From Hyperoplus lanceolatus (taxonomy: Eukaryota > Chordata > Actinopteri > Uranoscopiformes > Ammodytidae): 64,000 nucleotides of DNA. Location: positions 1-64,000 of the forward strand of contig JAMBYZ020000055.1 of NCBI GenBank assembly GCA_026929865.2, in the 5' to 3' direction. Below the pieces are notes generated by a model that ran no database searches, was not told the origin of the DNA, and worked only from the letters and a program-made list of their open reading frames with translations. Position 1 is the stretch's first letter; each line of letters starts with the position of its first letter. This document shows, piece after piece, positions 1 to 62,578 of this stretch. The position numbers and the translations under genes were made by a program.

Positions 1-406
1 AGGTCATAGTTCACAACCCCATGAGGTCCCCCAAGAACTTTCAGGACATTCTGATGTGTAGTTTCAAAATAAAAGCCCACTAGATATTGAAAATATGAGA
101 GAAATTAGATATGATTTTGGATTCAATTTTAAAAAAAAACGCCCTGTTATTCCAGAGTCATTCCACTCCAGGGTCATAGTTCACAACCCCATGAGGTCCC
201 CCAAGAACTTTCAGGACATTCTGATGTGTAGTTTCAGAAATAAAAGCCCACTAGATATTGAAAATATGAGAGAAATTAGATACGATTTTGGATTCAATTT
301 AAAAAAAACGCCCTGTTATTCCAGAGTCATTCCACCTGCAGGGTCATAATTCACAACCCCATGAGGTCAAACAAGAAGATTCAGGACATTCTGATGTGTA
401 CTTTCA

Positions 407-462
407 GGGTGACCTTTTTTTAATTGAATCCGAAATCATATCGAATTTGTCTCATATTTTCA
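407..462 (-). repeat. Inverted block 1, short form (56 bp)
   Basis: The usual forward-to-antisense junction begins here but jumps from GGGTGACC straight into T-run and AATTGAATCCGAAATC, the last part of a standard block. About 240 bp of antisense DNA is missing. The hairpin end is normal. About 6.7 forward monomers follow. Confidence 0.85.
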
Positions 463-837
463 AAATTAGATATGATTTTGGATTCAATAAAAAAAAAAAC
501 GCCCTGTTATTCCAGAGTCATTCCACTCCAGGGTCATAGTTCACAACCCCATGAGGTCCCCCAAGAAGTTTCAGGACATTCTGATGTGTAGTTTCAAAAT
601 AAAAGCCCACTAGATATTGAAAATATGAGAGAAATTAGATATGATTTTGGATTCAATTTTTAAAAAAACTCCCCGTTATTCCAGAGTCATTCCACTCCAG
701 GGTCATAGTTCACGACCCCATGAGGCCACACAAAAAGTTTCAGGACATTCTGATGTGTAGTTTCAGAATAAAAGCCCAATAGATATTGAAAATATGAGAA
801 AAATTAGATAAGATTTTGGATTCAATTTAAAAAAAAA

Positions 838-1006
838 CGCCCTGTTATTCCAGAGTCATTCCACTCCAGGGTCATAGTTCACGACCCCATGAAGCCACAC
901 AAAAAGTTTCAGGATATTCTGATGTGTACTTTCAAAATAAAAGCCCACTTGATATTGAAAATATCAGAGAAATTAGATATGATTTTGGATTCAATTTTTA
1001 AAAAAA
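838..1006 (+). repeat. Representative satellite monomer (169 bp)
   Basis: This copy shows the standard order of sub-motifs: CGCCCTGTTATTCCAGAG; TCATTCCACTCCAGGGTCAT; a variable segment here reading CACGACCCCATGAAGCCACA, the main subtype marker; TTTCAGGATATTCTGATG; ATAAAAGCCCAC; the dyad ATATT-GAA-AATAT; AAATTAGATATGATTTTGG; then a T-run/A-run (TTTTTAAAAAA). The variable segment separates subtypes: GTCCCCCAAGAAG, GTCCCCCAAGAACTT, GCCACACAAAAAG, GCCATACAAAAAG, GCCACACAAACAG, GTCACCCAAGAAG, CCAAATAAACAG and GAAGCCACAC. This one is a penultimate-type copy (GAAGCCACAC, ACTTGATATTG, ATCAGAG) although no inverted block follows it. 169 is not a multiple of three, so reading frames shift at each copy. 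Confidence 0.95.
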
Positions 1007-1601
1007 CTCCCTGTTATTCCAGAGTCATTCCACTCCAGGGTCATAGTTCACGACCCCATGAGGCCACACACAAAGTTTCAGGACATTCTGATGTGTAGTT
1101 TCAGAATAAAAGCCCACTAGATATTGAAAATTTGAGAAAAATTAGTTATGATTTTGGATTCAATTTAAAAAAAAACGCCCTGTTATTCCAGAGTCATTCC
1201 ACTCCAGGGTCATAGTTCACAACCCCTTGAGGTCCCCCAAGAACTTTCAGGACATTCTGATGTGTAGTTTCAAAATAAAAGCCCACTAGATATTGAAAAT
1301 ATGAGAGAAATTAGATATGATTTTGGATTCAATTAAAAAAAAAACGCCCTGTTATTCCAGAGTCATTCCACTCCAGGGTCATAGTTCACAACCCCATGAG
1401 GTCCCCCAAGAACTTTCAGGATATTCTGATGTGTAGTTTCAAAATAAAAGCCCACTAGATATGAGAGAAATTAGATACGATTTTGGATTCAATTTAAAAA
1501 AAAACGCCCTGTTATTCCAGAGTCATTCCACTGCAGGGTCATAATTCAGAACCCCATGAGGTCACACAAGAAGATTCAGGACATTCTGATGTGTACTTTC
1601 A

Positions 1602-1897
1602 GGGTGACCTCATGGGGTGACCTCATGGGGTTGTGAACTTTGACCCTGGAGTTGAATGACTCTGGAATAACAGGGCGTTTTTTTCAAAATTGAATCCAAA
1701 ATCATATCTAATTTCTCTCATATTTTCAATATCAAGTGGGCTTTTATTCTGAAACTACACATCAGAATGTCCTGAAACTTTGTGTGTGGCCTCATGGGGT
1801 CGTGAACTATGACCCTGGAGTGGAATTTTTCTGGAATAACAGGGCGTTTTTTTTTTAATTGAATCCGAAATCATATCGAATTTGTCTCATATTTTCA
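1602..1897 (-). repeat. Inverted block 2, full length (296 bp)
   Basis: A complete block of 1.7 antisense monomers. It starts with the duplicated GGTGACCTCATGG and ends at the hairpin junction. It has the block-specific bases GAATCCGAAATC and ATTTGTCTCAT near the hairpin, plus ATCGAATTTG, shared with blocks 1 and 33. Run after it: 471 bp (2.8 monomers). Confidence 0.93.
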
Positions 1898-2368
1898 AAA
1901 TTAGATATGATTTTGGAATCAATAAAAAAAAAACGCCCTGTTATTCCAGAGTCATTCCACTCCAGGGTCATAGTTCACGACCCCATGAGGCCACACAAAA
2001 AGTTTCAGGACATTCTGATGTGTAGTTTCAGAATAAAAGCCCACTAGATATTGAAAATATGAGAGCAATTAGATATGATTTTGGATTCAATTTTTTAAAA
2101 AACGCCCTGTTATTCCAGAGTCATTCCACTCCAGGGTCATAGTTCACGACCCCATGAAGCCACACAAAAAGTTTCAGGATATTCTGATGTGTACTTTCAA
2201 AATAAAAGCCCACTTGATATTGAAAATATCAGAGAAATTAGATATGATTTTGGATTCAACTTTTAAAAAAACTCCCTGTTATTCCAGAGTCATTCCACTG
2301 CAGGGTCATAATTCACAACCCCATGAGGTCACACAAGAAGATTCAGGACATTCTGATGTGTACTTTCA

Positions 2369-2661
2369 GGGTGACCTCATGGGGTGACCTCATGGGGTTG
2401 TGAACTTTGAACCTGGAGTTGAATGACTCTGGAATAACAGGGCGTTTTTTTTAAATTGAATCCAAAATCATATCTAATTTCTCTCATATTTTCAATATCA
2501 AGTGGGCTTTTATTCTGAAACTACACATCAGAATGTCCTGAAACTTTTGTGTGTGGCCTCATGGGGTCGTGAACTATGACCCTGGAGTGGAATTTTCTGG
2601 AATAACAGGGCGTTTTTTTTAATTGAATCCGAAATCATATCTAATTTGTCTCATATTTTCA
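2369..2661 (-). repeat. Inverted block 3, full length (293 bp)
   Basis: Standard block. The hairpin is followed by CAATTAAAAATTAAAACGCC rather than a pure A-run. That variant recurs only near 57.26, 58.79 and 59.72 kb and links the two ends of the window. Confidence 0.93.
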
Positions 2662-3066
2662 AAATTAGATATGATTTTGGATTCAATTAAAAATTAAAAC
2701 GCCCTGTTATTCCAGAGTCATTCCACTCCAGGGTCATAGTTCACAACCCCATGAGGTCCCCCAAGAAGTTTCAGGACATTCTGATGTGTGGTTTCAAAAT
2801 AAAAGCCCACTAGATATTGAAAATATGAGAGAAATTAGATATGATTTTGGATTCAATTTTTAAAAAAACTCCATGTTATTCCAGAGTCATTCCACTCCAG
2901 GGTCATAGTTCACGACCCCATGAGGCCACACAAAAAGTTTCAGGACATTCTGATGTGTAGTTTCAGAATAAAAGCCCACTAGATATTGAAAATATGAGAA
3001 AAATTAGATATGATTTTGGATTCAATTTAAAAAAAAACGCCCTGTTATTCCAGAGTCATTCCACTC

Positions 3067-3261
3067 AAAATCATATCTAATTTTTCTCATATTTTCAATA
3101 TCTAGTGGGCTTTTATTCTGAAACTACATCAGAATGTCCTGAAACTTTGTGTGTGGCCTCATGGGGTGGGAACTATGACGCTGGAGTGGAATTTTCTGGA
3201 ATAACAGGGCGTTTTTTTTTAATTGAGATCGAAATCATATCTAATTTGTCTCATATTTTGA
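3067..3261 (-). repeat. Inverted block 4, alternative left breakpoint (195 bp)
   Basis: A forward monomer is cut after TCATTCCACTC and continues directly as AAAATCATATCTAATTT in antisense. The usual GGGTGACCTCATGGGG head and the terminal-type monomer are both missing. The hairpin end is standard apart from small changes (TTTTGAAAATTATAT). About 6.8 forward monomers follow. Confidence 0.88.
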
Positions 3262-4410
3262 AAATTATATATGATTTTGGATTCAATAAAAAAAAAACGC
3301 CCTGTTATTCCAGAGTCATTCCACTCCAGGGTCATAGTTCACGACCCCATGAGGCCACACACAAAGTTTCAGGACATGCTGATGTGTAGTTTCAGAATAA
3401 AAGCCCACTAGATATTGAAAATATGAGAAAAATTAGATATGATTTTGGATTCAATTTAAAAAAAAAACGTCCTGTTATTCCAGAGTCATTCCACTCCAGG
3501 GTCATAGTTCACGACCCCATGAGGCCACACAAACAGTTTCAGGACATTCTGATGTGTAGTTTCAGAATAAAAGCCCACTGGATATTGAAAATATGAGAGA
3601 AATTAGATATGATTTTGGATTCAATTTAAAAAAAAACGCCCTGTTACTCCAGAAACATTCCACTCCAGGGTCATAGTTCACAACCCCATGAGGTCACCCA
3701 AGAAGTTTCAGGACATTCTGATGTGTAGTTTCAAAATAAAAGCCCACTAGATATTGAAAATATGAGAGAAGTTAGATATGATTTTGGATTCAATTTTTAA
3801 AAAAACGCCCTGTTATTCCAGAGTCATTCCAATCCAGGGTCATAGTTCACGACCCCGTGAGGCCACACAAAAAGTTTCAGGATATTCTGATGTGTAGTTT
3901 CAAAATAACAGCCCACTAGATATTGAAAATATGAGAGAAATTAGATATGATTTTGGATTCAATTTTTAAAAAAACGCCCTGTTATTCCAGAGTCATTCCA
4001 CTCCAGGGTCATAGTTCACGACCCCATGTAGCCACACAAAAAGTTTCAGGATATTCTGATGTGTACTTTCAAAATAAAAGCCCACTTGATATTGAAAATA
4101 TCAGAGAAATTAGATATGATTTTGGATTCAATTTTTAAAAAAACGCCCTGTTATTCCAGAGTCATTCCACTCCAGGGTCATAGTTCACGACCCCATGAGG
4201 CCACACAAAAAGTTTCAGGACATTCTGATGTGTAGTTTCAGAATAAAAGCCCACTAGATATTGAAAATATGAGAGAAATTAGATATGATTTTGGATTCAA
4301 TTTAAAAAAAAAACGCCCTGTTATTCCAGAGTCATTCCACTGCAGGGTCATAATTCACAACCCCATGAGGTCACACAAGAAGATTCAGGACATTATGATG
4401 TGTACTTTCA

Positions 4411-7568: not shown

Positions 7569-8379
7569 AAATTAGATATGATTTTGGATTCAATAAAAAA
7601 AAAACGCCCTGTTATTCCAGAGTCATTCCACTCCAGGGTCATAGTTCACAACCCCATGAGGTCCCCCAAGAAGTTTCAGGACATTCTGATGTGTAGTTTC
7701 AGAATAAAAGCCCACTAGATATTGAAAATATGAGAGAAATTACATATGATTTTGGATTACATTTTTAAAAAAACGCCCTGTTATTCCAGAGTCATTCCAC
7801 TCCAGGGTCATAGTTCACGACCCCATGAGGCCACACAAACAGTTTCAGGACATTCTGATGTGTAGTTTCAGAATAAAAGCCCACTAGATATTGAAAATAT
7901 GAGAGAAATTAGATATGATTTTGGATTCAATTTAAAAAAAAACGCCCTGTTATTCCAGAGTCATTCCACTCCAGGGTCATAGTTCACGACCCCATGAAGC
8001 CACACAAAAAGTTTCAGGATATTCTGATGTGTACTTTCAAAATAAAAGCCCACTTGATATTGAAAATATCAGAGAAATTAGATATGATTTTGGATTCAAT
8101 TGTTAAAAAAAACGCCCTGTTATTCCAGAGTCATTCCACTCCAGCGTCATAGTCCACGACCCCCTGAGGCCACACAAAAAGTTTCAGGACATTCTGATGT
8201 GTAGTTTCAAAATAAAAGCCCACTAGATATTGAAAATATGAGAGAAATTAGATATGAGTTTGGATTCAATTTTAAAAAAAAACGCCCTGTTATTCCAGAG
8301 TCATTCCACTGCAGGGTCATAATTCACAACCCCATGAGGTCACACAAGAAGATTCAGGACATTCTGATGTGTACTTTCA

Positions 8380-8426
8380 GGGTGACCTCATGGGGTGACC
8401 TCATGGGGTTGTGAACTTTGACCCTG
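8380..8426 (-). repeat. Inverted block 8, remnant (47 bp)
   Basis: The head GGGTGACCTCATGGGG through GAACTTTGACCCTG is present, then the sequence switches at once to forward GATATGACTTTGGATTC. The rest of the block and the hairpin are absent. A long forward run (about 3.3 kb) follows. Confidence 0.85.
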
Positions 8427-8744
8427 ATATGACTTTGGATTCAATTTTCAAAAAAAAACGCCCTGTTATTCCAGAGTCATTCCACTCCAGGGTCATAGTT
8501 CACAACCCCATGAGGGCCACACAAGAAGTTTCAGGACATTCTGATGTGTAGTTTCAGAATAAAAGCCCACTAGATATTGAAAATATGAGAGAAATTAGAT
8601 ATGATTTTGGATTCAATTTAAAAAAAAACGCCCTGTTATTCCAGAGTCATTCCACTCCAGGGTCATAGTTCACAACCCCATGAGGTCCCCCAAGAAGTTT
8701 CAGGACATTCTGATGTGTAGTTTCAAAATAAAAGCCCACTAGAT

Positions 8745-18604: not shown

Positions 18605-18665
18605 TGTGTACTTTCAGGGTGAATAAAAGCCCACTAGATATTGAAAATATGACGAGAAATTAGAT
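18605..18665 (+). other. Remnant of a forward-to-antisense junction
   Basis: The terminal-type signature GTGTACTTTCAGGGTGA is present but continues as forward ATAAAAGCCCAC instead of antisense. AATATGACGAGAAATTAG has one extra base. A block may have been removed at its head. Confidence 0.6.
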
Positions 18666-26130: not shown

Positions 26131-27434
26131 ATTTTGGATTCAATTAAAAAAAAAACGCCCTGTTATTCCAGAGTCATTCCACTCCAGGGTCATAGTCCAC
26201 GACCCCATGAGGCCACACAAAAAGTTTCAGGACATTCTGATGTGTAGTTTCAAAATTAAAGCGCCACTAGATATTGAAAATATGAGAGAAATTACATTTG
26301 ATTTTGGATTCATTTAAAAAAAAACGCCCTGTTATTCCAGAGTCATTCCACTCCAGGGTCATAGTTCACGACCCCATGAGGCCACACAAACAGTTTCAGG
26401 ACATTCTGATGTGTAGTTTCAGAATAAAAGCCCACTAGATATTGAAAATATGAGAGAAATTAGATATGATTTTGGATTCAATTTAAAAAAAAACGCCCTG
26501 TTATTCCAGAGTCATTCCACTCCAGGGTCATAGTTCACAACCCCATGAGGTCACCCAAGAAGTTTCAGGACATTCTGATGTGTAGTTTCAAAATAAAAGC
26601 CCACTAGATATTGAAAATATGAGAGAAATTAGATATGATTTTGGATTCAATTTAAAAAAAAACGCCCTGTTATTCCAGAGTCATTCCACTCCAGGGTCAT
26701 AGTTCACGACCCCATGAGGTCCCCCAAGAAGTTTCAGGACATTCTGATGTGTAGTTTCAGAATAAAAGCCCACTAGATATTGAAAATATGAGAGAAATTA
26801 GATATGATTTCGGATTCAATTTTTAAAAAAACGCCCTGTTATTCCAGAGTCATTCCACTCCAGGGTCATAGTTCACAACCCCATGAGGTCCCCCAAGAAC
26901 TTTCAGGATATTCTGATGTGTAGTTTCAAAATAAAAGCCCACTAGATATTGAAAATATGAGAGAAATTATATATGATTTTGGATTCAATTTTAAAAAAAA
27001 CGCCCTGTTATTCCAGAGTCATTCCACTCCAGGGTCATAGTTCACGACCCCATGAGGCCACACAAAAAGTTTCAGGACATTCTGATGTGTAGTTTCAGAA
27101 TAAAAGCCCACTAGATATTGAAAATATGAGAGAAATTAGATATGATTTTGGATTCAATTTTTTAAAAACGCCCTGTTATTCCAGAGTCATTCCACTCCAG
27201 GGTTATAGTTCACGACCCCATGAAGCCACACAAAAAGTTTCAGGATATTCTGATGTGTACTTTCAAAATAAAAGCCCACTTGATATTGAAAATATCAGAG
27301 AAATTAGATATGATTTTGGATTCAATTTTTAAAAAAACACCCTGTTATTCCAGAGTCATTCCACTGCAGGGTCATAATTCACAACCCCATGAGGTCACAC
27401 AAGAAGATTCAGGACATTCTGATGTGTACTTTCA

Positions 27435-27625
27435 GGGTGCCTCTGGGAAAATCCCACTAGATATTTGAAATATTTTCAAAATTAGATATGATTTTGGATT
27501 CAATTTTAAAAAAAAACGCCCTGTTATTCCAGAGTCATATCCAACTCTCATAGGGTCATCAAGTTCACAACCCCATGAGGTCCCCCAAAGAAGTTCTGCA
27601 GGACATTGACTGATGTGTAGTTTCA
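27435..27625 (+). other. Collapsed junction plus insertion-rich monomer
   Basis: After the terminal-type GTGTACTTTCAGGGTG the sequence reads CCTCTGGGAAAATCCCAC, then TATTTGAAATATTTTCAAAATTAG, the hairpin join without antisense DNA. The next monomer has many extra bases (CATATCCAACTCTCATAGGG, CATCAAGTTCAC, GAAGTTCTGCAGGACATTGA). Confidence 0.65.
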
Positions 27626-33728: not shown

Positions 33729-33820
33729 GGGTGACCTCATGGGGTGACCTCATGGGGTTGTGAACTTTGACCCTGGACTTGAATGACTCTGGAATAAAAG
33801 GGTTTGGTTAATTTGAATTA
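33729..33820 (-). repeat. Inverted block 17, truncated (92 bp)
   Basis: The head through GGACTTGAATGACTCTGGAA is present, then AAAAGGGTTTGGTTAATTTG leads into forward AAAATTAGATATG. More than 190 bp of antisense DNA is gone compared with its duplicate partner at 29668. Confidence 0.85.
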
Positions 33821-33879
33821 AAATTAGATATGATTTTGGATTCAATTTAAAAAAACGCCCTGTTATTCCAGAGTCATTC

Positions 33880-36761: not shown

Positions 36762-38368
36762 AAATTAGATATGATTTTGGATTCAATAAAAAAAAAACGC
36801 CCTGTTATTCCAGAGTCATTCCACTCCAGGGTCATAGTTCACGACCCCATGAAGCCACACAAAAAGTTTCAGGATATTCTGATGTGTAGTTTCAAAATAA
36901 AAGCCCACTAGATATTGAAAATATGAGAGAAATTAGATATGATTTTGGATTCAATTTTAAAAAAAACGCCCTGTTATTCCAGAGTCATTCCACTCCAGCG
37001 TCATAGTCCACGACCCCTCGAGGCCACACAAAAAGTTTCAGGACATTCTGATGTGTAGTTTCAAAATTAAAGTGCACTAGATATTGAAAATATGAGAGAA
37101 ATTACATATGATTTTGGATTAAATTTTTTAAAAAAACGCCCTGTTATTCCAGAGTCATTCCACTCCAGGGTCATAGTTCACGACCCCATGAAGCCACACA
37201 AACAGTTTCAGGACATTCTGATGTGTAGTTTCAGAATAAAAGCCCACTAAATATTGAAAATATGAGAGAAATTAGATATGATTTTGGATTCAATTTAAAA
37301 AAAAACGCCCTGTTATTCCAGAGTCATTCCACTCCAGGGTCATAGTTCACAACCCCATGAGGTCACCCAAGAAGTTTCAGGACATTCTGATGTGTAGTTT
37401 CAAAATAAAAGCCCACTAGATATTGAAAATATGACAGAAATTAGATATGATTTTGGATTCAATTTGAAAAAAAAACGCCCTGTTATTCCAGAGTCATTCC
37501 ACTCCAGGGTCATAGTTCACAACCCCATGAGGTCCCCCAAGAACTTTCAGGACATTCTGATGTGTAGTTTCAAAATAAAAGCCCACTAGATATTGAAAAT
37601 ATGAGAGAAATTAGATATGATTTTGGATTCAATTTTTAAAAAAACGCCCTGTTATTCCAGAGTCATTCCACTCCAGGGTCATAGCTCACGACCCCATGAG
37701 GCCACACAAAAAGTTTCAGGACATTCTGATGTGTAGTTTCAGAATAAAAGCCCACTAGATATTGAAAATATGAGAGAAATTAGATATGATTTTGGATTCA
37801 ATTTTTTAAAAAAACGCCCTGTTATTCCAGAGTCATTCCACTCCAGGGTCATAGTTCACGACCCCATGAAGCCACACAAAAAGTTCCAGGATATTCTGAT
37901 GTGTAATTTCAGAATAAAAGCCCACTAGATATTGAAAATATCAGAGAAATTAGATATGATTTTGGATTCAATTTAAAAAAAAACGCCCTGTTATTCCAGA
38001 GTCATTCCACTGCAGGGTCATAATTCACAACCCCATGAGGTCACACAAGAAGATTCAGGACATTCTGATGTGTACTTTCAGGGTGACCTCATGGGGTGAC
38101 CTCATGGGGTTGTGAACTTTGACCCTGGACTTGAATGACTCTGGAATAAAAGGGCGTTTTTTTTAAATTGAATCCAAAATCATATCTAATTTTCTCATAT
38201 TTTCAATATCAAGTGGGCTTTTATTCTGAAACTACACATCAGAATGTCACTGTTGTGTGTGGCCTCATGGGGTCGTGAACTATGACCCTGGAGTGGAATT
38301 TTCTGGAATATCAGGGCGTTTTTTTTTAATTGAATCCGAAATCATATCTAATTTGTCTCATATTTTCA
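36762..38368 (+). repeat. 1.61-kb HOR, copy 1
   Basis: A 7.8-monomer forward run plus inverted block 20. Order: GAAGCCACAC with TAGTTTCAAAA; GTCCACGACCCCTCGAGG with AAGTGCAC; GAAGCCACACAAACAG with CACTAAATATTG; CACCCAAGAAG with AATATGACAG; CCCCCAAGAACTT; GCTCACGACC; GAAGCCACAC with GTTCCAGG and GTAATTTCAG; terminal monomer. Confidence 0.88.
38081..38368 (-). repeat. Inverted block 20 (288 bp)
   Basis: Block of HOR copy 1, with GGACTTGAATG, GGAATAAAAGGGCG and GGAATATCAGGGCG. A short loss gives ATGTCACTGTTGTGTG where copy 2 has the full ATGTCCTGAAACTTTGTGTG. Confidence 0.93.
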
Positions 38369-39979
38369 AAATTAGATATGATTTTGGATTCAATAAAAAA
38401 AAAACGCCCTGTTATTCCAGAGTCATTCCACTCCAGGGTCATAGTTCACGACCCCATGAAGCCACACAAAAAGTTTCAGGATATTCTGATGTGTAGTTTC
38501 AAAATAAAAGCCCACTAGATATTGAAAATATGAGAGAAATTAGATATGATTTTGGATTCAATTTTAAAAAAAAACGCCCTGTTATTCCAGAGTCATTCCA
38601 CTCCAGCGTCATAGTCCACGACCCCTCGAGGCCACACAAAAAGTTTCAGGACATTCTGATGTGTAGTTTCAAAATTAAAGTGCACTAGATATTGAAAATA
38701 TGAGAGAAATTACATATGATTTTGGATTAAATTTTTAAAAAAACGCCCTGTTATTCCAGAGTCATTCCACTCCAGGGTCATAGTTCACGACCCCATGAAG
38801 CCACACAAACAGTTTCAGGACATTCTGATGTGTAGTTTCAGAATAAAAGCCCACTAAATATTGAAAATATGAGAGAAATTAGATATGATTTTGGATTCAA
38901 TTTAAAAAAAAACGCCCTGTTATTCCAGAGTCATTCCACTCCAGGGTCATAGTTCACAACCCCATGAGGTCACCCAAGAAGTTTCAGGACATTCTGATGT
39001 GTAGTTTCAAAATAAAAGCCCACTAGATATTGAAAATATGACAGAAATTAGATATGATTTTGGATTCAATTTGAAAAAAAAACGCCCTGTTATTCCAGAG
39101 TCATTCCACTCCAGGGTCATAGTTCACAACCCCATGAGGTCCCCCAAGAACTTTCAGGACATTCTGATGTGTAGTTTCAAAATAAAAGCCCACTAGATAT
39201 TGAAAATATGAGAGAAATTAGATATGATTTTGGATTCAATTTTTAAAAAAACGCCCTGTTATTCCAGAGTCATTCCACTCCAGGGTCATAGCTCACGACC
39301 CCATGAGGCCACACAAAAAGTTTCAGGACATTCTGATGTGTAGTTTCAGAATAAAAGCCCACTAGATATTGAAAATATGAGAGAAATTAGATATGATTTT
39401 GGATTCAATTTTTAAAAAAACGCCCTGTTATTCCAGAGTCATTCCACTCCAGGGTCATAGTTCACGACCCCATGAAGCCACACAAAAAGTTCCAGGATAT
39501 TCTGATGTGTAATTTCAGAATAAAAGCCCACTAGATATTGAAAATATCAGAGAAATTAGATATGATTTTGGATTCAATTTAAAAAAAAAACGCCCTGTTA
39601 TTCCAGAGTCATTCCACTGCAGGGTCATAATTCACAACCCCATGAGGTCACACAAGAAGATTCAGGACATTCTGATGTGTACTTTCAGGGTGACCTCATG
39701 GGGTGACCTCATGGGGTTGTGAACTTTGACCCTGGACTTGAATGACTCTGGAATAAAAGGGCGTTTTTTTTAAATTGAATCCAAAATCATATCTAATTTT
39801 CTCATATTTTCAATATCAAGTGGGCTTTTATTCTGAAACTACACATCAGAATGTCCTGAAACTTTGTGTGTGGCCTCATGGGGTCGTGAACTATGACCCT
39901 GGAGTGGAATTTTCTGGAATATCAGGGCGTTTTTTTTTAATTGAATCCGAAATCATATCTAATTTGTCTCATATTTTCA
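38369..39979 (+). repeat. 1.61-kb HOR, copy 2
   Basis: Same monomer order as copy 1, including CACTAAATATTG, AATATGACAG and GTTCCAGG with GTAATTTCAG. Copies 1 and 2 differ at only a few visible places, mainly A-run lengths and the loss in block 20. Confidence 0.9.
39688..39979 (-). repeat. Inverted block 21 (292 bp)
   Basis: Block of HOR copy 2, undamaged, with GGACTTGAATG, AAAAGGGCG and AATATCAGGGCG as in block 20. Starts 1,607 bp after block 20. Confidence 0.93.
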
Positions 39980-41595
39980 AAATTAGATATGATTTTGGAT
40001 TCAATAAAAAAAAAACGCCCTGTTATTCCAGAGTCATTCCACTCCAGGGTCATAGTTCACGACCCCATGAAGCCACACAAAAAGTTTCAGGATATTCTGA
40101 TGTGTAGTTTCAAAATAAAAGCCCACTAGATATTGAAAATATGAGAGAAATTAGATATGATTTTGGATTCAATTTTAAAAAAAACGCCCTGTTATTCCAG
40201 AGTCATTCCACTCCAGCGTCATAGTCCACGACCCCTCGAGGCCACACAAAAAGTTTCAGGACATTCTGATGTGTAGTTTCAAAATTAAAGTGCACTAGAT
40301 ATTGAAAATATGAGAGAAATTACATATGATTTTGGATTAAATTTTAAAAAAAACGCCCTGTTATTCCAGAGTCATTCCACTCCAGGGTCATAGTTCACGA
40401 CCCCATGAGGCCACACAAACAGTTTCAGGACATTCTGATGTGTAGTTTCAGAATAAAAGCCCACTAGATATTGAAAATATGAGAGAAATTAGATATGATT
40501 TTGGATTCAATTTTAAAAAAAACGCCCTGTTATTCCAGAGTCATTCCACTCCAGGGTCATAGTTCACAACCCCATGAGGTCACCCAAGAAGTTTCAGGAC
40601 ATTCTGATGTGTAGTTTCAAAATAAAAGCCCACTAGATATTGAAAATATGAGAGAAATTAGATATGATTTTGGATTCAATTTGAAAAAAAAACGCCCTGT
40701 TATTCCAGAGTCATTCCACTCCAGGGTCATAGTTCACAACCCCATGAGGTCCCCCAAGAACTTTCAGGACATTCTGATGTGTAGTTTCAAAATAAAAGCC
40801 CACTAGATATTGAAAATATGAGAGAAATTAGATATGATTTTGGATTCAATTTTTAAAAAAACGCCCTGTTATTCCAGAGTCATTCCACTCCAGGGTCATA
40901 GCTCACGACCCCATGAGGCCACACAAAAAGTTTCAGGACATTCTGATGTGTAGTTTCAGAATAAAAGCCCACTAGATATTGAAAATATGAGAGAAATTAG
41001 ATATGATTTTGGATTCAATTTTTTAAAAAAACGCCCTGTTATTCCAGAGTCATTCCACTCCAGGGTCATAGTTCACGACCCCATGAAGCCACACAAAAAG
41101 TTTCAGGATATTCTGATGTGTAGTTTCAGAATAAAAGCCCACTAGATATTGAAAATATCAGAGAAATTAGATATGATTTTGGATTCAATTTAAAAAAAAA
41201 CGCCCTGTTATTCCAGAGTCATTCCACTGCAGGGTCATAATTCACAACCCCATGAGGTCACACAAGAAGATTCAGGACATTCTGATGTGTACTTTCAGGG
41301 TGACCTCATGGGGTGACCTCATGGGGTTGTGAACTTTGACCCTGGAGTTGAATGACTCTGGAATAACATGCCGTGTTTTTTAAATTGAATCCAAAATCAT
41401 ATCTAATTTCTCTCATATTTTCAATAAAAAGTGGGCTGTTTATTCTGAAACCCACATCAGAATGTCCTGAAACTATGATTGTGGCCTCATGGGGTCGTGT
41501 TATTCAGAGTATTCCCTCAGGGCATAGTTACTGGAATAATTTCAGGGCATTTTTATTGAATTTCAAAATCATATCTAATTTGTCTCATATTTTCA
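39980..41595 (+). repeat. 1.61-kb HOR, copy 3 (variant)
   Basis: Same order as copies 1 and 2, but with ordinary bases at several sites: GAGGCCACACAAACAG, CACTAGATATTG, AATATGAGAG, GTTTCAGG with GTAGTTTCAG. Its block also lacks GGACTTGAATG. It shares GCTCACGACC and the AAGTGCAC variant with the others. Confidence 0.88.
41298..41595 (-). repeat. Inverted block 22 (298 bp, scrambled second half)
   Basis: Head normal. The middle reads ATGCCGTGTTTTTTAAATTG and AATAAAAAGTGGGCTG. The second antisense monomer is scrambled around GTGTTATTCAGAGTATTCCC and ACTGGAATAATTTCAGGGC, where a forward-like TTATTCAGAG fragment sits inside antisense DNA. Confidence 0.87.
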
Positions 41596-42715
41596 AAATT
41601 AGATATGATTTTGGATTCAATAAAAAAAAAAAACGCCCTGTTATTCCAGAGTCATTCCACTCCAGGGTCATAGTTCACAACCCCATGAGGTCCCCCAAGA
41701 AGTTTCAGGACATTCTGATGTGTAGTTTCAAAAAAAACATAGATATTGAAAATATGAGAAAATTAGATATGATTTTGGATTAATTTAAAAAAACGCCCTG
41801 TTATTCCAGAGTCATTCCACTGCAGGGTCATAGTTCACGACCCCGTGAAGCCACACAAAAAGTTTCAGGATATTCTGATGTGTAGTTTCAAAATAAAAGC
41901 CCACTAGATATTGAAAATATGAGAGAAATTAGATATGATTTTGGATTCAATTTAAAAAAAAAAACGCCCTGTTATTCCAGAGTCATTCCACTGCAGGGTC
42001 ATAATTCACAACCCCATGAGGTCACACAAGAAGATTCAGGACATTCTGATGTGTAGTTTCAAAATAAAAGCCCACTAGATATTGAAAATATGAGAGAAAT
42101 TAGATATGATTTTGGATTCAATTTTTAAAAAAACTCCCTGTTATTCCAGAGTCATTCCACTCCAGGGTCATAGTTCACGACCCCATGAGGCCACACACAA
42201 AGTTTCAGGACATTCTGATGTGTAGTTTCAGAATGAAAGCCCACTAGATATTGAAAATATGAGAAAAATTAGATATGATTTTGGATTCAATTTTAAAAAA
42301 AAACGCCCTGTTATTCCAGAGTCATTCCACTCCAGGGTCATAGTTCACAACCCCATGAGGTCCCCCAAGAAGTTTCAGGACATTCTGATGTCTAGTTTCA
42401 AAATAAAAGCCCACTAGATATTGAAAATATGAGAGAAATTAGATATGATTTTGGATTCAATTTTTAAAAAAACTCCCTGTTATTCCAGAGTCATTCCACT
42501 CCAGGGTCATAGTCCACGACCCCTAGAGGCCACACAAAAAGTTTCAGGACATTCTGATGTGTAGTTTCAAAATTAAAGCGCACTAGATATTGAAAATATG
42601 AGAGAAATTAGATATGATTTTGGATTCAATTTAAAAAAAACACCCTGTTATTCCAGAGTGATTCAACTCCAGGGTCAAAGTTCACAACCCCATGAGGTCA
42701 CCCCATGAGGTCACC
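41596..42715 (+). repeat. Forward run of mixed monomers (~6.6 monomers)
   Basis: Begins with a post-hairpin monomer. The next copy is shortened (TTCAAAAAAAACATAGATATTG), then come a CCCCGTGAAGCC copy and a terminal-type CTGCAGGG...AAGAAGATTC copy that is not followed by a block. The run ends at the mirror-image junction. Confidence 0.8.
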
Positions 42716-42859
42716 CTGAAACTACACATCAGAATGTCCTGAATCTTCTTGTGTGACCTCATGGGGTTGTGAATATGACCCTGGAGTTGAATAACTCTGG
42801 AATAACAGGGGGTTTTTTAATTGAACCCAAAATCATATCTAATTTGTCTCATATTTTCA
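42640..42859 (-). repeat. Inverted block 23: mirror-image junction
   Basis: The forward monomer carries ATTCAACTCCAGGGTCAAAG then CCCCATGAGGTCACCCCATG, which is the reverse complement of the normal block head. The antisense part from 42716 carries GAATCTTCTTGTGTGACCTC, the reverse complement of the normal terminal monomer. The junction is thus present in opposite orientation while both flanks keep their usual direction. The hairpin end is standard. Confidence 0.85.
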
Positions 42860-44183
42860 AAATTAGATATGATTTTGGATTCAATTAAAAGAAAAAACGC
42901 CCTGTTATTCCAGAGTCATTCCACTCCAGGGTCATAGTTCCCAACCCCATGAGGTCCCCCAAGAAGTTTCAGGACATTCTGATGTGTAGTTTCAAAATGA
43001 AAGCCCACTAGATATTGAAAATATGAGAGAAATTAGATATGATTTTGGATTCAATTTTTAAAAAAAACTCCCTGTTATTCCAGAGTCATTCCACTCCAGG
43101 GTTATAGTTCACGACCCCATGAGGCCACACACAAAGTTTCAGGACATTCTGATGTGTAGTTTCAGAATAAAAGCCCACTAGATATTGAAAATATGAGAGA
43201 AATTACATATGATTTTGGATTACATTTTTAAAAAAACGCCCTGTTATTCCAGAGTCATTCCACTCCAGGGTCATAGTTCACGACCCCATGAGGCCAAATA
43301 AACAGTTTCAGGACATTCTGATGTGTAGTTTCAGAATAAAAGCCCACTAGATATTGAAAATATGAGAGAAATTAGATATGATTTTGGATTCAATTTTTAA
43401 AAAAAAACGCCCTGTTATTCCAGAGTCATTCCACTCCAGGGTCATAGTTCACAACCCCATGAGGTCCCCCAAGAAGTTTCAGGACATTCTGATGTGTAGT
43501 TTCAAAATAAAAGCCCACTAGATATTGAAAATATGAGAGAAATTACATATGATTTTGGATTAAATTTTTAAAAAAAACGCCCTGTTATTCCAGAGTCATT
43601 CGACTCCAGGGTCATAGTTCACGACCCCATGAGGCCAAATAAACAGTTTCAGGACATTCTGATGTGTAGTTTCAGAATAAAAGCCCACTAGATATTGAAA
43701 ATATCAGAGAAATTAGATATGATTTTGGATTCAATTTTTAAAAAAACGCCCTGTTATTCCAGAGTCATTCCACTCCAGGGTCATAGTTCACAACCCCATG
43801 AGGTCACACAAAAAGTTTCAGGACATTCTGATGTGTAGTTTCAAAATAAAAGCCCACTAGATATTGAAAATATGAGAGAAATTAGATATGATTTTGGATT
43901 AAATTTTTAAAAAAACGCCCTGTTATTCCAGAGTCATTCCACTCCAGGGTCATAGTTCACGACCCCATGAGGCCACACAAAAAGTTTCAGGACATTCTGA
44001 TGTGTAGTTTCAAAAAAAAAAGCCCACTAGATATTGAAAATATGAGAGAAATTAGATATGATTTTGGATTCAATTTAAAAAAAAAACGCCCTGTTATTCC
44101 AGAGTCATTCCACTGCAGGGTCATAATTCACAACCCCATGAGGTCACACAAGAAGATTCAGGACATTCTGATGTGTACTTTCA
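42860..44183 (+). repeat. Forward run (7.8 monomers)
   Basis: Includes GCCACACACAAAG, ATTACATATG / GGATTACATTT and two CCAAATAAACAG monomers with TCATTCGACTCC, as in the 28- and 32-kb segments. Ends in a terminal monomer. Confidence 0.85.
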
Positions 44184-44469: not shown

Positions 44470-46068
44470 AAATTAGATATGATTTTGGATTCAATAAAAA
44501 AAAAACGCCCTGTTATTCCAGAGTCATTCCACTCCAGGGTCATAGTTCACGACCCCATGAAGCCACACAAAAAGTTTCAGGATATTCTGATGTGTAGTTT
44601 CAAAATAAAAGCCCACTAGATATTGAAAATATGAGAGAAATTAGATATGATTTTGGATTCAATTTAAAAAAAAACGCCCTGTTATTCCAGAGTCATTCCA
44701 CTCCAGCGTCATAGTCCACGACCCCTCGAGGCCACACAAAAAGTTTCAGGACATTCTGATGTGTAGTTTCAAAATTAAAGTGCACTAGATATTGAAAATA
44801 TGAGAGAAATTACATATGATTTTGGATTAAATTTTTAAAAAAACGCCCTGTTATTCCAGAGTCATTCCACTCCAGGGTCATAGTTCACGACCCCATGAGG
44901 CCACACAAACAGTTTCAGGACATTCTGATGTGTAGTTTCAGAATAAAAGCCCACTAAATATTGAAAATATGAGAGAAATTAGATATGATTTTGGATTCAA
45001 TTTAAAAAAAAACGCCCTGTTATTCCAGAGTCATTCCACTCCAGGGTCATAGTTCACAACCCCATGAGGTCACCCAAGAAGTTTCAGGACATTCTGATGT
45101 GTAGTTTCAAAATAAAAGCCCACTAGATATTGAAAATATGACAGAAATTAGATATGATTTTGGATTCAATTTGAAAAAAAAACGCCCTGTTATTCCAGAG
45201 TCATTCCACTCCAGGGTCATAGTTCACAACCCCATGAGGTCCCCCAAGAACTTTCAGGACATTCTGATGTGTAGTTTCAAAATAAAAGCCCACTAGATAT
45301 TGAAAATATGAGAGAAATTAGATATGATTTTGGATTAAATTTTTAAAAAAACGCCCTGTTATTCCAGAGTCATTCCACTCCAGGGTCATAGCTCACGACC
45401 CCATGAGGCCACACAAAAAGTTTCAGGACATTCTGATGTGTAGTTTCAGAATAAAAGCCCACTAGATATTGAAAATATGAGAGAAATTAGATATGATTTT
45501 GGATTCAATTTTTTAAAAAAACGCCCTGTTATTCCAGAGTCATTCCACTCCAGGGTCATAGTTCACGACCCCATGAAGCCACACAAAAAGTTTCAGGATA
45601 TTCTGATGTGTAGTTTCAGAATAAAAGCCCACTAGATATTGAAAATATGAGAGAAATTAGATATGATTTTGGATTCAATTTAAAAAAAAACGCCCTGTTA
45701 TTCCAGAGTCATTCCAGTGCAGGGTCATAATTCACAACCCCATGAGGTCACACAAGAAGATTCAGGACATTCTGATGTGTACTTTCAGGGTGACCTCATG
45801 GGGTGACCTCATGGGGTTGTGAACTTTGACCCTGGAGTTGAATGACTCTGGAATAACAGGGCGTTTTTTTAAATTGAATCCAAAATCATATCTAATTTAT
45901 CTCATATTTTCAATATCAAGTGGGCTTTATTCTGAAACTACACATCAGAATGTCCTGAAACTTGTGTGCTCATGGGGTCGTGAAATGACCCTGGAGTGGA
46001 ATTATTCTGGAATAACAGGGCGTTTTTTATTGAATCCGAAATCATATCTAATTTGTCTCATATTTTCA
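44470..46068 (+). repeat. 1.6-kb HOR, copy 4 (mosaic)
   Basis: Detached from the tandem trio by about 2.9 kb. The left half has CACTAAATATTG and AATATGACAG like copies 1 and 2. The right half has GTTTCAGG with GTAGTTTCAG like copy 3. GCTCACGACC is common to all four. Confidence 0.85.
45788..46068 (-). repeat. Inverted block 25 (281 bp)
   Basis: Standard block with small losses (AACTTGTGTGCTCATGGGG; GTCGTGAAATGACC). Starts 1,604 bp after block 24. Run after it: 1,488 bp (8.8 monomers). Confidence 0.92.
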
Positions 46069-57109: not shown

Positions 57110-57235
57110 GGGTGACCTCATGGGGTGACCTCATGGGGTTGTGAACTTTGACCCTGGAGTTGAATGACTCTGGAATAACAGGGCGTTTTTTTTTAATTGA
57201 ATCCGAAATCATATCTAATTTGTCTCATATTTTCA
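57110..57235 (-). repeat. Inverted block 32, one monomer shorter (126 bp)
   Basis: Head and hairpin end are both intact, but the first GGAATAACAGGGCG runs straight into the AATTGAATCCGAAATC of the last antisense monomer. The loss equals one monomer (about 165 bp), as expected from crossover between the two antisense copies. Confidence 0.9.
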
Positions 57236-57712
57236 AAATTAGATATGATTTTGGATTCAATTAAAAATTAAAACGCCCTGTTATTCCAGAGTCATTCCAC
57301 TCCAGGGGTCATAGTTCACAACCCCATGAGGTCCCCCAAGAAGTTTCAGGACATTCTGATGTGTGGTTTCAAAATAAAAGCCCACTAGATATTGTCTAAA
57401 ATATGAGAGAAATTAGATATGATTTTGGATTCAATTTAAAAAAAAACGCCCTGTTATTCCAGAGTCATTCCACTCCAGGGTCATAGTTCACAACCCCATG
57501 AGGTCCCCCAAGAACTTTCAGGACATTCTGATGTGTATTTTCAAAATAAAAGCCCACTAGATATTGAAAATATGAGAGAAATTAGATATGATTTTGGATT
57601 CAATTTAAAAAAAAACGCCCTGTTATTCCAGAGTCATTCCACTGCAGGGTCATAATTCACAACCCCATGAGGTCACACAAGAAGATTCAGGACATTCTGA
57701 TGTGTACTTTCA

Positions 57713-58474: not shown

Positions 58475-58762
58475 GGGTGACCTCATGGGGTGACCTCATG
58501 GGGTTGTGAACTTTGACCCTGGAGTTGAATGACTCTGGAATAACAGGGCGTTTTTTTAAATTGAATCCAAAATCATATCTAATTTCTCTCATATTTTCAA
58601 TATCAAGTGGGCTTTTATTCTGAAACTACACATCAGAATGTCCTGAAACTTTGTGTGTGGCCTCATGGGGTCGTGACTATGACCCTGGAGTGGAAATTTT
58701 CTGGAATAACAGGGCGTTTTTTTAGTGAATCGAAATCATATCTAATTTGTCTCATATTTTCA
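58475..58762 (-). repeat. Inverted block 34 (288 bp)
   Basis: Standard block. The T-run ends TTTTTTTAGTGAATCG, a change shared with block 35. Run after it: 642 bp (3.8 monomers). Confidence 0.93.
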
Positions 58763-59404
58763 AAATTAGATATGATTTTGGATTCAATTAAAAATTAAAA
58801 CGCCCTGTTATTCCAGAGTCATTCCACTCCAGGGTCATAGTTCACAACCCCATGAGGTCCCCCAAGAAGTTTCAGGACATTCTGATGTGTGGTTTCAAAA
58901 TAAAAGCCCACTAGATATTGAAAATATGAGAGAAATTAGATATGATTTTGGATTCAATTTTTAAAAAAACTCCCTGTTATTCCAGAGTCATTCCACTCCA
59001 GGGTCATAGTTCACAACCCCATGAGGTCCCCCAAGAACTTTCAGGACATTCTGATGTGTAGTTTCAAAATAAAAGCCCACTAGATATTGAAAATATGAGA
59101 GAAATTAGATATGATTTTGGATTCAATTTAAAAAAAAAAGCCCTGTTATTCCAGAGTCATTCCACTCCAGGGTCATAGTTCACAACCCCATGAGGTCCCC
59201 CAAGAACTTTCAGGATATTCTGATGTGTAGTTTCAAAATAAAAGCCCACTAGATATTGAAAATATGAGAGAAATTAGATACGATTTTGGATTCAATTTAA
59301 AAAAAAACGCCCTGTTATTCCAGAGTCATTCCACTGCAGGGTCATAATTCAGAACCCCATGAGGTCACACAAGAAGATTCAGGACATTCTGATGTGTACT
59401 TTCA

Positions 59405-59694
59405 GGGTGACCTCATGGGGTGACCTCATGGGGTTGTGAACTTTGACCCTGGAGTTGAATGACTCTGGAATAACAGGGCGTTTTTTTAAATTGAATCAAA
59501 ATCATATCTAATTTCTCTCATATTTTCAATATCAAGTGGGGCTTTTATTCTGAAACTACACATCAGAATGTCCTGAAACTCTGTGTGTGGCCTCATGGGG
59601 TCGTGAACTATGACCCTGGAGTGGATTTTTCTGGAATAACAGGGCGTTTTTTTTAGTGAATCCGAAATCATATCTAATTTGTCTCATATTTTCA
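59405..59694 (-). repeat. Inverted block 35 (290 bp)
   Basis: Standard block with TTTTAGTGAATCCG and ACTCTGTGTGTGG. Run after it: about 9.8 monomers. Confidence 0.93.
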
Positions 59695-60539
59695 AAATTA
59701 GATATGATTTTGGATTCAATTAAAAATTAAAACGCCCTGTTATTCCAGAGTCATTCCACTCCAGGGTCATAGTTCACAACCCCATGAGGTCCCCCAAGAA
59801 GTTTCAGGACATTCTGATGTGTGGTTTCAAAATAAAAGCCCACTAGATATTGAAAATATGAGAGAAATTAGATATGATTTTGGATTCAATTTTTAAAAAA
59901 AACTCCCTGTTATTCCAGAGTCATTCCACTCCAGGGTCATAGTTCACGACCCCATGAGGCCACACAAAAAGTTTCAGGACATTCTGATGTGTAGTTTCAG
60001 AATAAAAGCCCACTAGATATTGAAAATATGAGAAAAATTAGATATGATTTTGGATTCAATTAAAAAAAAAACGCCCTGTTATTCCAGAGTCATTCCACTC
60101 CAGGGTCACAGTTAACAACCCCAGGAGGTCCCCCAAGAACTTTCAGGACATTCTGATGTGTAGTTTCAAAATAAAAGCCCACTAGATATTGAAAATATGA
60201 GAGAAATTAGATATGATTTTGGATTCAATTTTTAAAAAAAACGCCCTGTTATTCCAGAGTCATTCCACTCCAGGGTCATAGTTCACGACCCCATGAGGCC
60301 ACACAAAAAATTTCAGGACATTCTGATGTGTAGTTTCAGAATAAAAGCCCACTAGATATTGAAAATATGAGAAAAATTAGATATGATTTTGGATTCAATT
60401 TAAAAAAAAAACGCCCTGTTATTCCAGAGTCATTCCACTCCAGGGTCATAGTTCACGACCCCATGAGGTCCCCCAAGAAGTTTCAGGACATTCTGATGTG
60501 TAGTTTCAGAATAAAAGCCCACTAGATATTGAAAATATG

Positions 60540-61255
60540 AGAGAAATTAGATATGATTTTGGATTCAATTAAAAAAAAAACGCCCTGTTATTCCAGAGTC
60601 ATTCCACTCCAGGGTCATAGTTCACGACCCCATGAGGCCACACAAAAAGTTTCAAGACATTCTGATTTGAAGTTTCAGAATAAAAGCCCACTAGATATTG
60701 AAAATATGAGAGCAATTAGATATGATTTTGGATTCAATTTTTAAAAAAACGCCCTGTTATTCCAGAGTCATTTCACTCCAGGGTCATAGTTCACGACCCC
60801 ATGAAGCCACACAAAAAGTTTCAGGATATTCTGATGTGTACTTTCAAAATAAAAGCCCACTTGATATTGAAAATATCAGAGAAATTAGATACGATTTTGG
60901 ATTCAATTTTTAAAAAAACACCCTGTTATTCCAGAGTCATTCCACTCCAGGGTCATAGTTCACGACCCCATGAGGCCACACAAAAAGTTTCAAGACATTC
61001 TGATGTGTAGTTTCAGAATAAAAGCCCACTAGATATTGAAAATATGAGAGCAATTAGATATGATTTTGGATTCAATTTTTAAAAAAACGCCCTGTTATTC
61101 CAGAGTCATTTCACTCCAGGGTCATAGTTCACGACCCCATGAAGCCACACAAAAAGTTTCAGGATATTCTGTTGTGTACTTTCAAAATAAAAGCCCACTT
61201 GATATTGAAAATATCAGAGAGATTAGATATGATTTTGGATTCAATTTTTAAAAAA
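60540..61255 (+). repeat. Two-monomer (338-bp) tandem duplication
   Basis: GAGAGCAATTAG followed by TCATTTCACTCC and a GAAGCCACAC penultimate copy occurs at about 60711 and again at about 61049. TTTCAAGACATTC precedes both. As a result two penultimate-type monomers occur in one unit. Confidence 0.85.
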
Positions 61256-61354
61256 AACACCCTGTTATTCCAGAGTCATTCCACTGCAGGGTCATAATTC
61301 ACAACCCCATGAGGTCACACAAGAAGATTCAGGACATTCTGATGTGTACTTTCA

Positions 61355-61645
61355 GGGTGACCTCATGGGGTGACCTCATGGGGTTGTGAACTTTGACCCT
61401 GGAGTTGAATGACTCTGGAATAACAGGGCGTTTTTTTAAATTGAATCAAAATCATATCTAATTTCTCTCATATTTTCAATATCAAGTGGGCTTTTATTCT
61501 GAAACTACACATCAGAATGTCCTGAAACTTTGTGTGTGGCCTCATGGGGTCGTGAACTATGAACCTGGAGTGGCATTTTTCTGGAATAACAGGGCGTTTT
61601 TTTTAATTGAATCCGAAATCATATCTAATTTGTCTCATATTTTCA
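61355..61645 (-). repeat. Inverted block 36 (291 bp)
   Basis: Standard block with GAACCTGGAGTGGCATTTTT. Run after it: 640 bp (3.8 monomers). Confidence 0.93.
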
Positions 61646-62285
61646 AAATTAGATATGATTTTGGATTCAATAAAAAAAAAAACGCCCTGTTATTCCAGAG
61701 TCATTCCACTCCAGGGTCATAGTTCACAACCCCATGGGGTCCCCCAAGAAGTTTCAGGACATTCTGATGTGTAGTTTCAAAATAAAAGCCCACTAGATAT
61801 TGAAAATATGAAAGAAATTAGATATGATTTTGGATTCAATTAAAAAAAAAACGCCCTGTTATTCCAGAGTCATTCCACTCCAGGGTCATAGTTCACAACC
61901 CCATGAGGTCCCCCAAGAACTTTCAGGACATTCTGATGTGTAGTTTCAAAATAAAAGCCCACTAGATATTGAAAATATGAGAGAAATTAGATATGATTTT
62001 GGATTCAATTTTTAAAAAAACGCCCTGTTATTCCAGAGTCATTCCACTCCAGGGTCATAGTTCATAACCCCATGAGGTCCCCAAAGAACTTTCAGGACAT
62101 TCTGATGTGTAGTTTAGAAATAAAAGCCCACTAGATATTGAAAATATGAGAGAAATTAGATACGATTTTGGATTCAATTTAAAAAAAAAGCCCTGTTATT
62201 CCAGAGTCATTCCACTGCAGGGTCATAATTCACAACCCCATGAGGTCACACAAGAAGATTCAGGACATTCTGATGTGTACTTTCA

Positions 62286-62553
62286 GGGTGACCTCATGGG
62301 GTGACCTCATGGGGTTGTGAACTTTGACCCTGGAGTTGAATGACTCTGGAATGCCAGGGCTTTTTTTTTAAATTGAATCCAAAATCATATCTACTTTCTC
62401 TCATATTTTCAATATCAAGTGGAATTTTATTCTGAAACTACACATCAGAATGTCCTGAAACTTTGTGTGTGGCCTCATGGGGTCGTGAACTATGACCCTG
62501 GAGTGGAATTTTTCTGGAATAACAGGGCGTTTTTTTTTAATTGAATCCGAAAT
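62286..62553 (-). repeat. Inverted block 37, truncated before the hairpin (268 bp)
   Basis: Head and most of the block are normal, but it stops at TTGAATCCGAAAT and switches to a 25-base forward piece (GTGTGTAGTTTCAG...AAAAGCCC, to 62578). The LINE starts directly after. This is the only block lacking the hairpin join because of a foreign element. Confidence 0.88.
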
Positions 62554-62578
62554 GTGTGTAGTTTCAGAATAAAAGCCC

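What the first reader, a model, noticed from the sequence alone, without database searches (positions are those of the whole stretch)
1..62578. Satellite with a built-in, regularly recurring inversion: forward runs quantised at n + 0.8 monomers
Forward stretches between inverted blocks measure about 471 (five times), 640-642, 809-811, 978 (three times), 1315-1324 (seven times), 1487-1488, 1823-1830, 2164, 2332 and 2833 bp. These equal 2.8, 3.8, 4.8, 5.8, 7.8, 8.8, 10.8, 12.8, 13.8 and 16.8 monomers of 169 bp. Almost every exception is a visibly damaged block or contains a scar. The architecture is a strict grammar: post-hairpin monomer, n internal monomers, penultimate, terminal, 1.7 antisense monomers, hairpin. 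Ordinary satellites are head-to-tail over long distances, so a strand switch every 0.5-3 kb throughout an array is unusual. I do not recognise this family as described.
Basis: partly seen in the sequence, partly recalled or inferred. Interest (0 to 1): 0.82.

Follow-up and report, generated by a model that had tools for sequence, protein, structure and literature searches.

The report
Satellite with one amplified inversion
A 169-base tandem repeat found on at least five large pieces of this genome carries, every few kilobases, copies of one and the same short backwards block, most likely a single ancient copying accident that was duplicated thousands of times along with its neighbours.

Summary
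The window (1-62578) is a 169-bp satellite that switches strand every 0.5-5 kb. Of 70 strand switches in the window, 66 use two fixed breakpoint pairs; with 268 kb from other contigs added, 303 of 328 do. Forward runs are n+0.8 monomers (28 of 32 within 0.05). No counting mechanism is needed: copies of one inversion with fixed ends, in an array that changes by whole monomers, must give n+0.8.
One founding event is supported by private near-fixed variants of the antisense block and of the monomer before it and by trees. The exact 26-base junction occurs 7,632 times in the 807-Mb genome. Recent copies are whole tandem units.
Block plus flanks folds into two strong hairpins. Block intervals are disturbed in 32 of 156 cases, sense intervals in 28 of 1225. 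Some blocks seem to have recombined into larger inversions. I found no clear sign that pairing is selected. Closest precedent: Tribolium madens, with conserved amplified inversion sites (PMC13081366). This is a new, asymmetric variant. Centromere function is untested.

The parts
1..62578 (+). 169-bp satellite array (GC 0.366), sense orientation +, interrupted by antisense blocks
1443..1602 (+). example terminal monomer (last sense monomer before the S->AS junction; this copy is about 160 bp); the class carries 28G, 39A, 69A, 91C at 0.94-0.99
1602..1630 (+). example S->AS junction J: GGGTGACCTCATG in two copies; 33 such junctions in the window
1617..1898 (-). example full antisense block (282 bp, phase 60 down to 117 through one extra monomer); 26 blocks with both ends intact in the window, one of them one monomer shorter (57125-57236)
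1858..1923 (+). example AS->S junction H: 26-pair stem in the consensus (mismatches in this copy) with a 14-base loop
1898..2369 (+). example shortest common forward run (2.8 monomers)
1434..2033 (+). terminal monomer + J + antisense block + H + post-hairpin segment; folds as two adjacent hairpins, -265.8 kcal/mol
   Evidence: control
36762..41298 (+). three successive n=7 units (a further copy at 44470) with in-register monomer identity 0.993-1.0 (terminal monomer left out of the comparison): recent tandem copies of whole units
41596..42860 (.). junction J in flipped orientation, explicable by homologous recombination between sense monomers and the neighbouring antisense block
8370..8429 (+). 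scar: J kept, most of the antisense block and H deleted
18606..18625 (+). scar or ancestor-like site: J remnant GGGTG running straight into sense monomer
27424..27490 (+). scar: J remnant, jumbled bases, then H-like remnant
33744..33821 (.). truncated antisense block (59 bp left)

Best explanation
This is a tandem satellite of ordinary monomer length (169 bp) in which a 282-bp stretch of the opposite strand was once spliced in between phase 97 and phase 132. The likeliest cause is one strand-switching replication or repair event (inferred). The composite 'terminal monomer - 13-bp duplication - antisense block - foldback - post-hairpin segment' then behaved as part of a variable-length higher-order unit. 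Unequal exchange or similar recombination duplicated whole units in tandem (shown for recent copies; the process is inferred) and changed the number of plain monomers between blocks only in whole steps, hence n+0.8. Exchange among arrays, or recent common origin of the arrays, put it on many contigs (the lack of array-specific clustering is shown; the route is inferred). The blocks are probably side-effect structures: they form long inverted repeats, their length is disturbed unusually often, and they supply homology for larger secondary inversions.
For: 303 of 328 strand switches at the same two breakpoint pairs in 9 stretches from the window, C1, C5, C8 (two), C14, C100, C200 and C400. Private near-fixed variants of antisense blocks (131C 0.96, 24A 0.98, 37A 0.98, 112T 0.91; internal monomers 0.05 or less) and of terminal monomers. 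In trees of samples (40 of 123 antisense blocks, 30 of 127 terminal, 60 of 612 internal monomers), 40 of 40 antisense segments on the J side (branch support 0.77) and 37 of 40 on the H side (0.94) form pure groups, as do 28 of 30 and 29 of 30 terminal monomers. Whole-unit recent duplicates, in-register identity up to 1.0 over six monomers. Identity within arrays is not higher than between arrays (antisense 0.958 vs 0.963). Exact junction 7,632 times genome-wide. 12 segments join an antisense-type start to a sense-type end or the reverse. Length departures in 32 of 156 J->H intervals vs 28 of 1225 sense intervals, Fisher odds ratio 11.
Against: The founding mechanism is inferred. Phases show it is not a clean cut-and-flip, which would give antisense phases 131 to 98, but inversion with 19- and 71-bp flanking deletions fits as well as template switching, and homology at the joints is at most a few bases. 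25 of 328 switches lie elsewhere; some are damaged blocks, a few may be independent. The damage count includes mild length departures, secondary flips, cases where H had diverged beyond the motif, and possibly duplicated copies of one damaged block. At least 2 of the 12 mixed segments (C1 16505, C8b 11) abut an insertion or a stretch end and may not be recombinants. The near-absence of forward runs with n of 1 or less (3 of 130 against about 17 from a geometric distribution) is not explained by simple unequal exchange. Sampling outside C1 and the window is small.
Confidence: 0.8

Rival explanations
1. The block is a maintained structural element: a double hairpin or cruciform, spaced a few kilobases apart, that helps define or organise (peri)centromeric chromatin.
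For: A 600-nt module folds at -265.8 kcal/mol against a shuffle mean of -62.5, while plain satellite of equal length gives -40.5 and 97 of 100 shuffles fold at least as well. No exact CENP-B box in any fetched sequence; the review PMC8997354 (passages) links dyad symmetries to centromeres. Among copies chosen for exact ends, J and H-loop columns are mostly 0.97-1.0 uniform. Clusters lie within about 1.1 Mb of a contig end on C1, C5, C8 and C14. Few forward runs below 2.8 monomers. The H stem is slightly better paired than most shuffles (44 of 500 reach it).
Against: Arms do not co-vary: in 101 adjacent pairs (of 123 blocks) an antisense block is no more like its own arm (0.8981) than like other units' arms (0.8987; 424 of 500 shuffles at or above). 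In 90 distinct H copies 192 cells break pairing against 8 double changes that keep it, and 34 of 500 shuffles reach 8. Antisense diversity (pi 0.037) lies among those of the sense subfamilies (0.023, 0.032, 0.043). Long forward runs without blocks persist.
Confidence: 0.14
2. The block is a foldback-type or terminal-inverted-repeat transposon that inserts repeatedly into the satellite.
For: Compact inverted-repeat module present thousands of times.
Against: 303 of 328 switches at the same satellite phases, and the block itself is satellite sequence. 34 bp of phase missing rather than a target duplication on both sides. The one relic outside an array that was fetched (C1 14.09 Mb) has single-orientation satellite only. 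No full scan for dispersed blocks was done.
Confidence: 0.03
3. Assembly artefact (chimeric or palindromic read errors).
For: No reads were available. Satellites assemble poorly.
Against: Same base-precise joints with private variants on many contigs, 131 of 136 J copies of one exact length (these copies were chosen for exact phases), and 7,632 exact genome-wide matches.
Confidence: 0.02

Closest known systems
[quoted passage not shown] passages and section 7 read)
   Same: Satellite arrays change orientation at a few conserved, diverged and homogenised inversion sites; a structural frame with variable numbers of repeats between fixed points; no pronounced contig-specific clustering; presumed amplification of a rearrangement.
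   Different: There the switches build long macro-dyads (a few to tens of kilobases) tending to symmetry, in two interleaved beetle satellites. Here the antisense part is a fixed 1.67-monomer block between sense runs of mostly 2.8 to about 17 monomers (longest 36.8, possibly fused) of one satellite, with occasional secondary macro-inversions.
Satellites with an inverted repeat inside the monomer (TmSat2 704 bp; Tribolium brevicornis 1061 bp; both as told in PMC13081366)
   Same: About 300-470 bp inverted segments repeated with the satellite.
   Different: Here the inverted segment is not part of a fixed-length monomer; block spacing varies in whole-monomer steps.
Higher-order repeat organisation, such as primate alpha-satellite (171-bp monomers, head-to-tail; start of the abstract of PMC4585704 seen in the listing, the rest recalled)
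   Same: Monomers of similar length, position-specific variants, whole-unit tandem copies.
   Different: Alpha-satellite is head-to-tail; here each unit contains an inversion and unit length is variable.

Membership tests
Tandem satellite DNA with higher-order units | Head-to-tail monomers of one period over long arrays | tested here: met
   169-bp period across 62.6 kb; 308.5 kb of satellite tiled in all, window included
Tandem satellite DNA with higher-order units | Multi-monomer units duplicated in register | tested here: met
   11 of 455 same-length run pairs (n of 4 or more) with in-register identity above 0.99, all within one array
T. madens-type conserved inversion-site arrays | Few inversion sites, conserved across the genome and distinct from canonical monomers | tested here: met
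   in the contigs sampled
T. madens-type conserved inversion-site arrays | No contig-specific clustering | tested here: met
   within-array identity not above between-array identity in four classes; most within-array pairs come from C1 and the window
T. madens-type conserved inversion-site arrays | Near-symmetric multi-kilobase direct and inverted subarrays (macro-dyads) | tested here: not met
   antisense blocks 239-282 bp (123 of 128) or 110-115 bp (5 of 128), against sense runs of up to 36 full monomers; only secondary macro-flips on C1
Centromeric satellite | CENP-A occupancy | not testable with these tools
   sequence only
Centromeric satellite | One major array per chromosome on all chromosomes | tested here: inconclusive
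   places on C1, C5, C6, C8, C14 in a listing cut at 100 of 7,632; other contigs not listed
CENP-B-box satellite | NTTCGNNNNANNCGGGN box | tested here: not met
   0 exact matches on either strand of the window and all fetched loci; motif recalled
Foldback or TIR transposon | Insertion at varied sites with target-site duplication | tested here: not met
   same phase pairs in 303 of 328 switches
Known structured RNA | Match to an Rfam family | tested here: not met
   0 matches at gathering score in the window

The most novel reading that the evidence does not exclude
A satellite spread over many chromosomes uses a duplicated double-hairpin block as a recurrent structural mark of its (peri)centromeres, tolerated or favoured despite its instability, with a minimum sense spacer of about 472 bp that leaves each block its own pairing partner on both sides.
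Probability: 0.13. Interest if true: 0.75.

Novelty: new variant of a known kind. Interest (0 to 1): 0.45.

Why it matters
It gives thousands of copies of one base-precise inversion inside a repeat array. That is a natural tracer for how satellite units move between chromosomes, how often long inverted repeats are deleted or flipped in vivo, and whether dyad symmetry in such arrays is selected or simply carried along. The evidence so far favours the carried-along view, a useful counterweight to functional readings of similar arrays.

Tried and rejected
Literature: four monomer segments as text, 0 papers; assembly size, 3 unrelated papers; '169 bp' satellites, 2 unrelated papers; a strand-switch query, 0 papers; further queries on fish, dyads, chicken CNM, palindromes and teleosts gave listings only, from which some of the papers cited were opened. 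PMC4053949 (passages) has no occurrence of 'invert' or 'orientation'. Channel and blue catfish (PMC10071708, passages) were considered and rejected as the host satellite: 321-325 bp Xba elements. Host species not established; a fish is only my guess from genome size and the neighbouring LINE-like frame.

Rejected: simple in-place inversion (phases do not fit), foldback transposon (fixed phase), clear compensatory pairing, a distinct penultimate monomer. Flawed scripts: the damage counts (control intervals crossed blocks; H motif too lax) were replaced, and (motifs too lax). The 13-mer copy count is kept as a rough figure. Dropped before counts: one search left out junctions within 900 bp of a stretch end and 72 sense intervals touching a junction; one search left out those within 330 bp of an end; one search left out 1 forward run with n=0 and 5 short antisense blocks, and runs with n=1 from the terminal and penultimate classes; one search paired 101 of 123 antisense blocks with an arm; one search counts only segments less than 60 bp apart; 112 of 370 tiled segments lacked both standard ends and are outside the run-length counts.

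Full report
Observation. Tiling the window with the 169-bp consensus shows one satellite from 1 to 62578, sense on the + strand, broken by antisense blocks. There are 70 strand switches between neighbouring segments in the window: 33 at one junction (J: sense phase 97, 14 bases, antisense phase 60), 33 at the other (H: antisense phase 117, sense phase 132) and 4 elsewhere. Of 32 forward runs bounded by H and J, 28 are within 0.05 monomer of n+0.8. Lengths it left out are further n+0.8 values (1140, 1150, 1661), a run 0.06 off beside a truncated block (2004), and long runs holding scars of lost blocks (4207, 4713, 5258).

Extent. The window lies at the start of contig C70 of an 806.7-Mb, 527-contig genome. 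The exact 26-base J occurs 3,585 + 4,047 times there; the listing, cut at 100 places, shows C1, C5, C6, C8 and C14. I fetched 200 kb of C1 and 74 kb from C5, C8, C14 and four arbitrarily chosen small contigs; the large-contig places were chosen because they held junction hits. Three of the four small contigs carry the satellite with the same block; C300 does not. Without C300 and the eight short loci, the stretches analysed beyond the window total 268 kb, of which about 19.9 kb is non-satellite sequence in stretches over 300 bp on C1 and C400. Over all these arrays 303 of 328 switches use the two breakpoint pairs (152 J, 151 H). 130 sense runs were bounded at both ends, 114 of them within 0.05 of n+0.8; of 128 antisense blocks bounded at both ends 123 are 239-282 bp and 5 are one monomer shorter. 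With about 2.06 kb of satellite per block in the sample, the exact J count implies on the order of 16 Mb of this satellite (my multiplication; inexact junctions are not in it).

Origin of the block. Antisense blocks share private variants at 0.67-0.98 that internal sense monomers almost lack (0.05 or less), and the terminal monomer before J has its own (28G and 39A 0.94, 69A 0.98, 91C 0.99 against 0.07 or less). In trees of samples (40 of 123 antisense blocks, 30 of 127 terminal, 40 of 129 post-hairpin, 60 of 612 internal) the antisense segments form pure groups (40 of 40 on the J side, support 0.77; 37 of 40 on the H side, 0.94), as do terminal monomers (28 of 30, 29 of 30); the post-hairpin segment does not (best group 24 of 40 with 3 others). 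The penultimate and first full monomers have no diagnostic site. Among copies with exact phases J has one length in 131 of 136. In a rough count 148 of 170 J hits hold two copies of the 13-mer. I read this as one founding event. A clean cut-and-flip between phases 97 and 132 would give antisense phases 131 to 98; the actual 60 to 117 needs extra deletions or, more simply, a copied piece of the opposite strand with two strand switches (inference). Homology at the joints is at most a few bases.

How it spreads. Internal monomers fall mainly into two subfamilies in irregular order, which makes units recognisable. Eleven of 455 same-length run pairs match in register above 0.99 (terminal monomer left out), all within one array and some adjacent, for example 36762, 38369, 39980 and 44470 in the window. 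So whole units, block included, are copied locally. If block ends are fixed and exchange works in whole monomers, spacing can only be n+0.8; no ruler is needed. Antisense, terminal, internal and post-hairpin sequences are no more alike within arrays than between them, so either exchange reaches other arrays or the arrays share a recent origin (inference).

What the block does to the array. A 600-nt piece from terminal monomer to post-hairpin folds as two adjacent hairpins that share the antisense block (-265.8 kcal/mol, shuffle mean -62.5, 0 of 100 shuffles as good); plain satellite of the same length gives -40.5, and 97 of 100 shuffles fold at least as well. J->H length is off in 32 of 156 cases (3 more are one monomer short) against 28 of 1225 two-monomer sense intervals; overlapping intervals count an event twice on the sense side, and the J side includes mild departures, flips and unrecognised H. 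A second count finds 130 full, 7 one-monomer-short, 18 partial and 10 absent blocks after 165 J-type ends. Twelve segments begin as antisense and end as sense or the reverse, though at least two of them (C1 16505, C8b 11) abut an insertion or a stretch end. The others can explain a flipped J in the window (41596-42860) and orientation flips on C1, and point to homologous recombination between block and sense monomers.

Is it selected? Against: arms do not track each other (0.8981 own, 0.8987 shuffled, 424 of 500 at or above; 101 pairs); stem changes mostly break pairs (192 cells, 60 single changes that keep pairing, 8 double changes); shuffles reach the double-change count in 34 of 500 and the paired fraction (0.918) in 44 of 500, a slight excess at best; antisense diversity is ordinary (pi 0.037; sense subfamilies 0.023, 0.032, 0.043). 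For: terminal monomers have low diversity (pi 0.024; only the small subfamily of 52, chosen by its alleles, is lower at 0.023), the loops are very uniform, and runs of n=0 or 1 are rare (3 of 130 against about 17). Copies are not independent, so that last test is indicative only. Centromere location is plausible but unproved.

Comparison. Tribolium madens has thousands of conserved inversion sites, distinct from canonical subunits, no pronounced contig clustering and variable repeat numbers between fixed points (PMC13081366, passages and section 7), so the kind is known. The fixed short antisense block inside a variable sense run is the difference. My text searches listed no paper that I recognised as describing this satellite; most listed papers were not opened. 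Dfam and Repbase were not available.

Noticed in passing
62579-64000: The array is followed by non-satellite DNA with an open frame (62744-64000, open at the window edge) weakly matching the endonuclease domain of LINE-type elements (Pfam Exo_endo_phos_2 E 0.0013, Exo_endo_phos E 0.0014, both below the curated cut-off; none at E 0.001).
   Followed up: partly
C1 43.42-43.62 Mb (L009-L028): Array orientation flips as a whole several times; segments at some flips start as antisense block and end as sense run or the reverse.
   Followed up: partly
C1 14.09 Mb (L001, L002): A 958-bp single-orientation relic at 89.5% identity, without inversion; a possible outgroup copy.
   Followed up: no
18606-18625: Terminal-like monomer ending TTTCAGGGTG that runs straight into AATAAAAG: a near-complete block excision or a pre-inversion-like site. 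One exact case in the fetched data; three related forms on C1 (stretch positions 69772, 177794, 178811).
   Followed up: partly
all sampled arrays: Forward runs with n=0 or 1 are nearly absent (3 of 130), while n=2 is common (17); cause unknown.
   Followed up: partly
internal monomers, all sampled arrays: Two main monomer subfamilies (phases 45/57/65 = G/C/A and A/T/G) in irregular mixture, with a smaller G/T/G class.
   Followed up: partly
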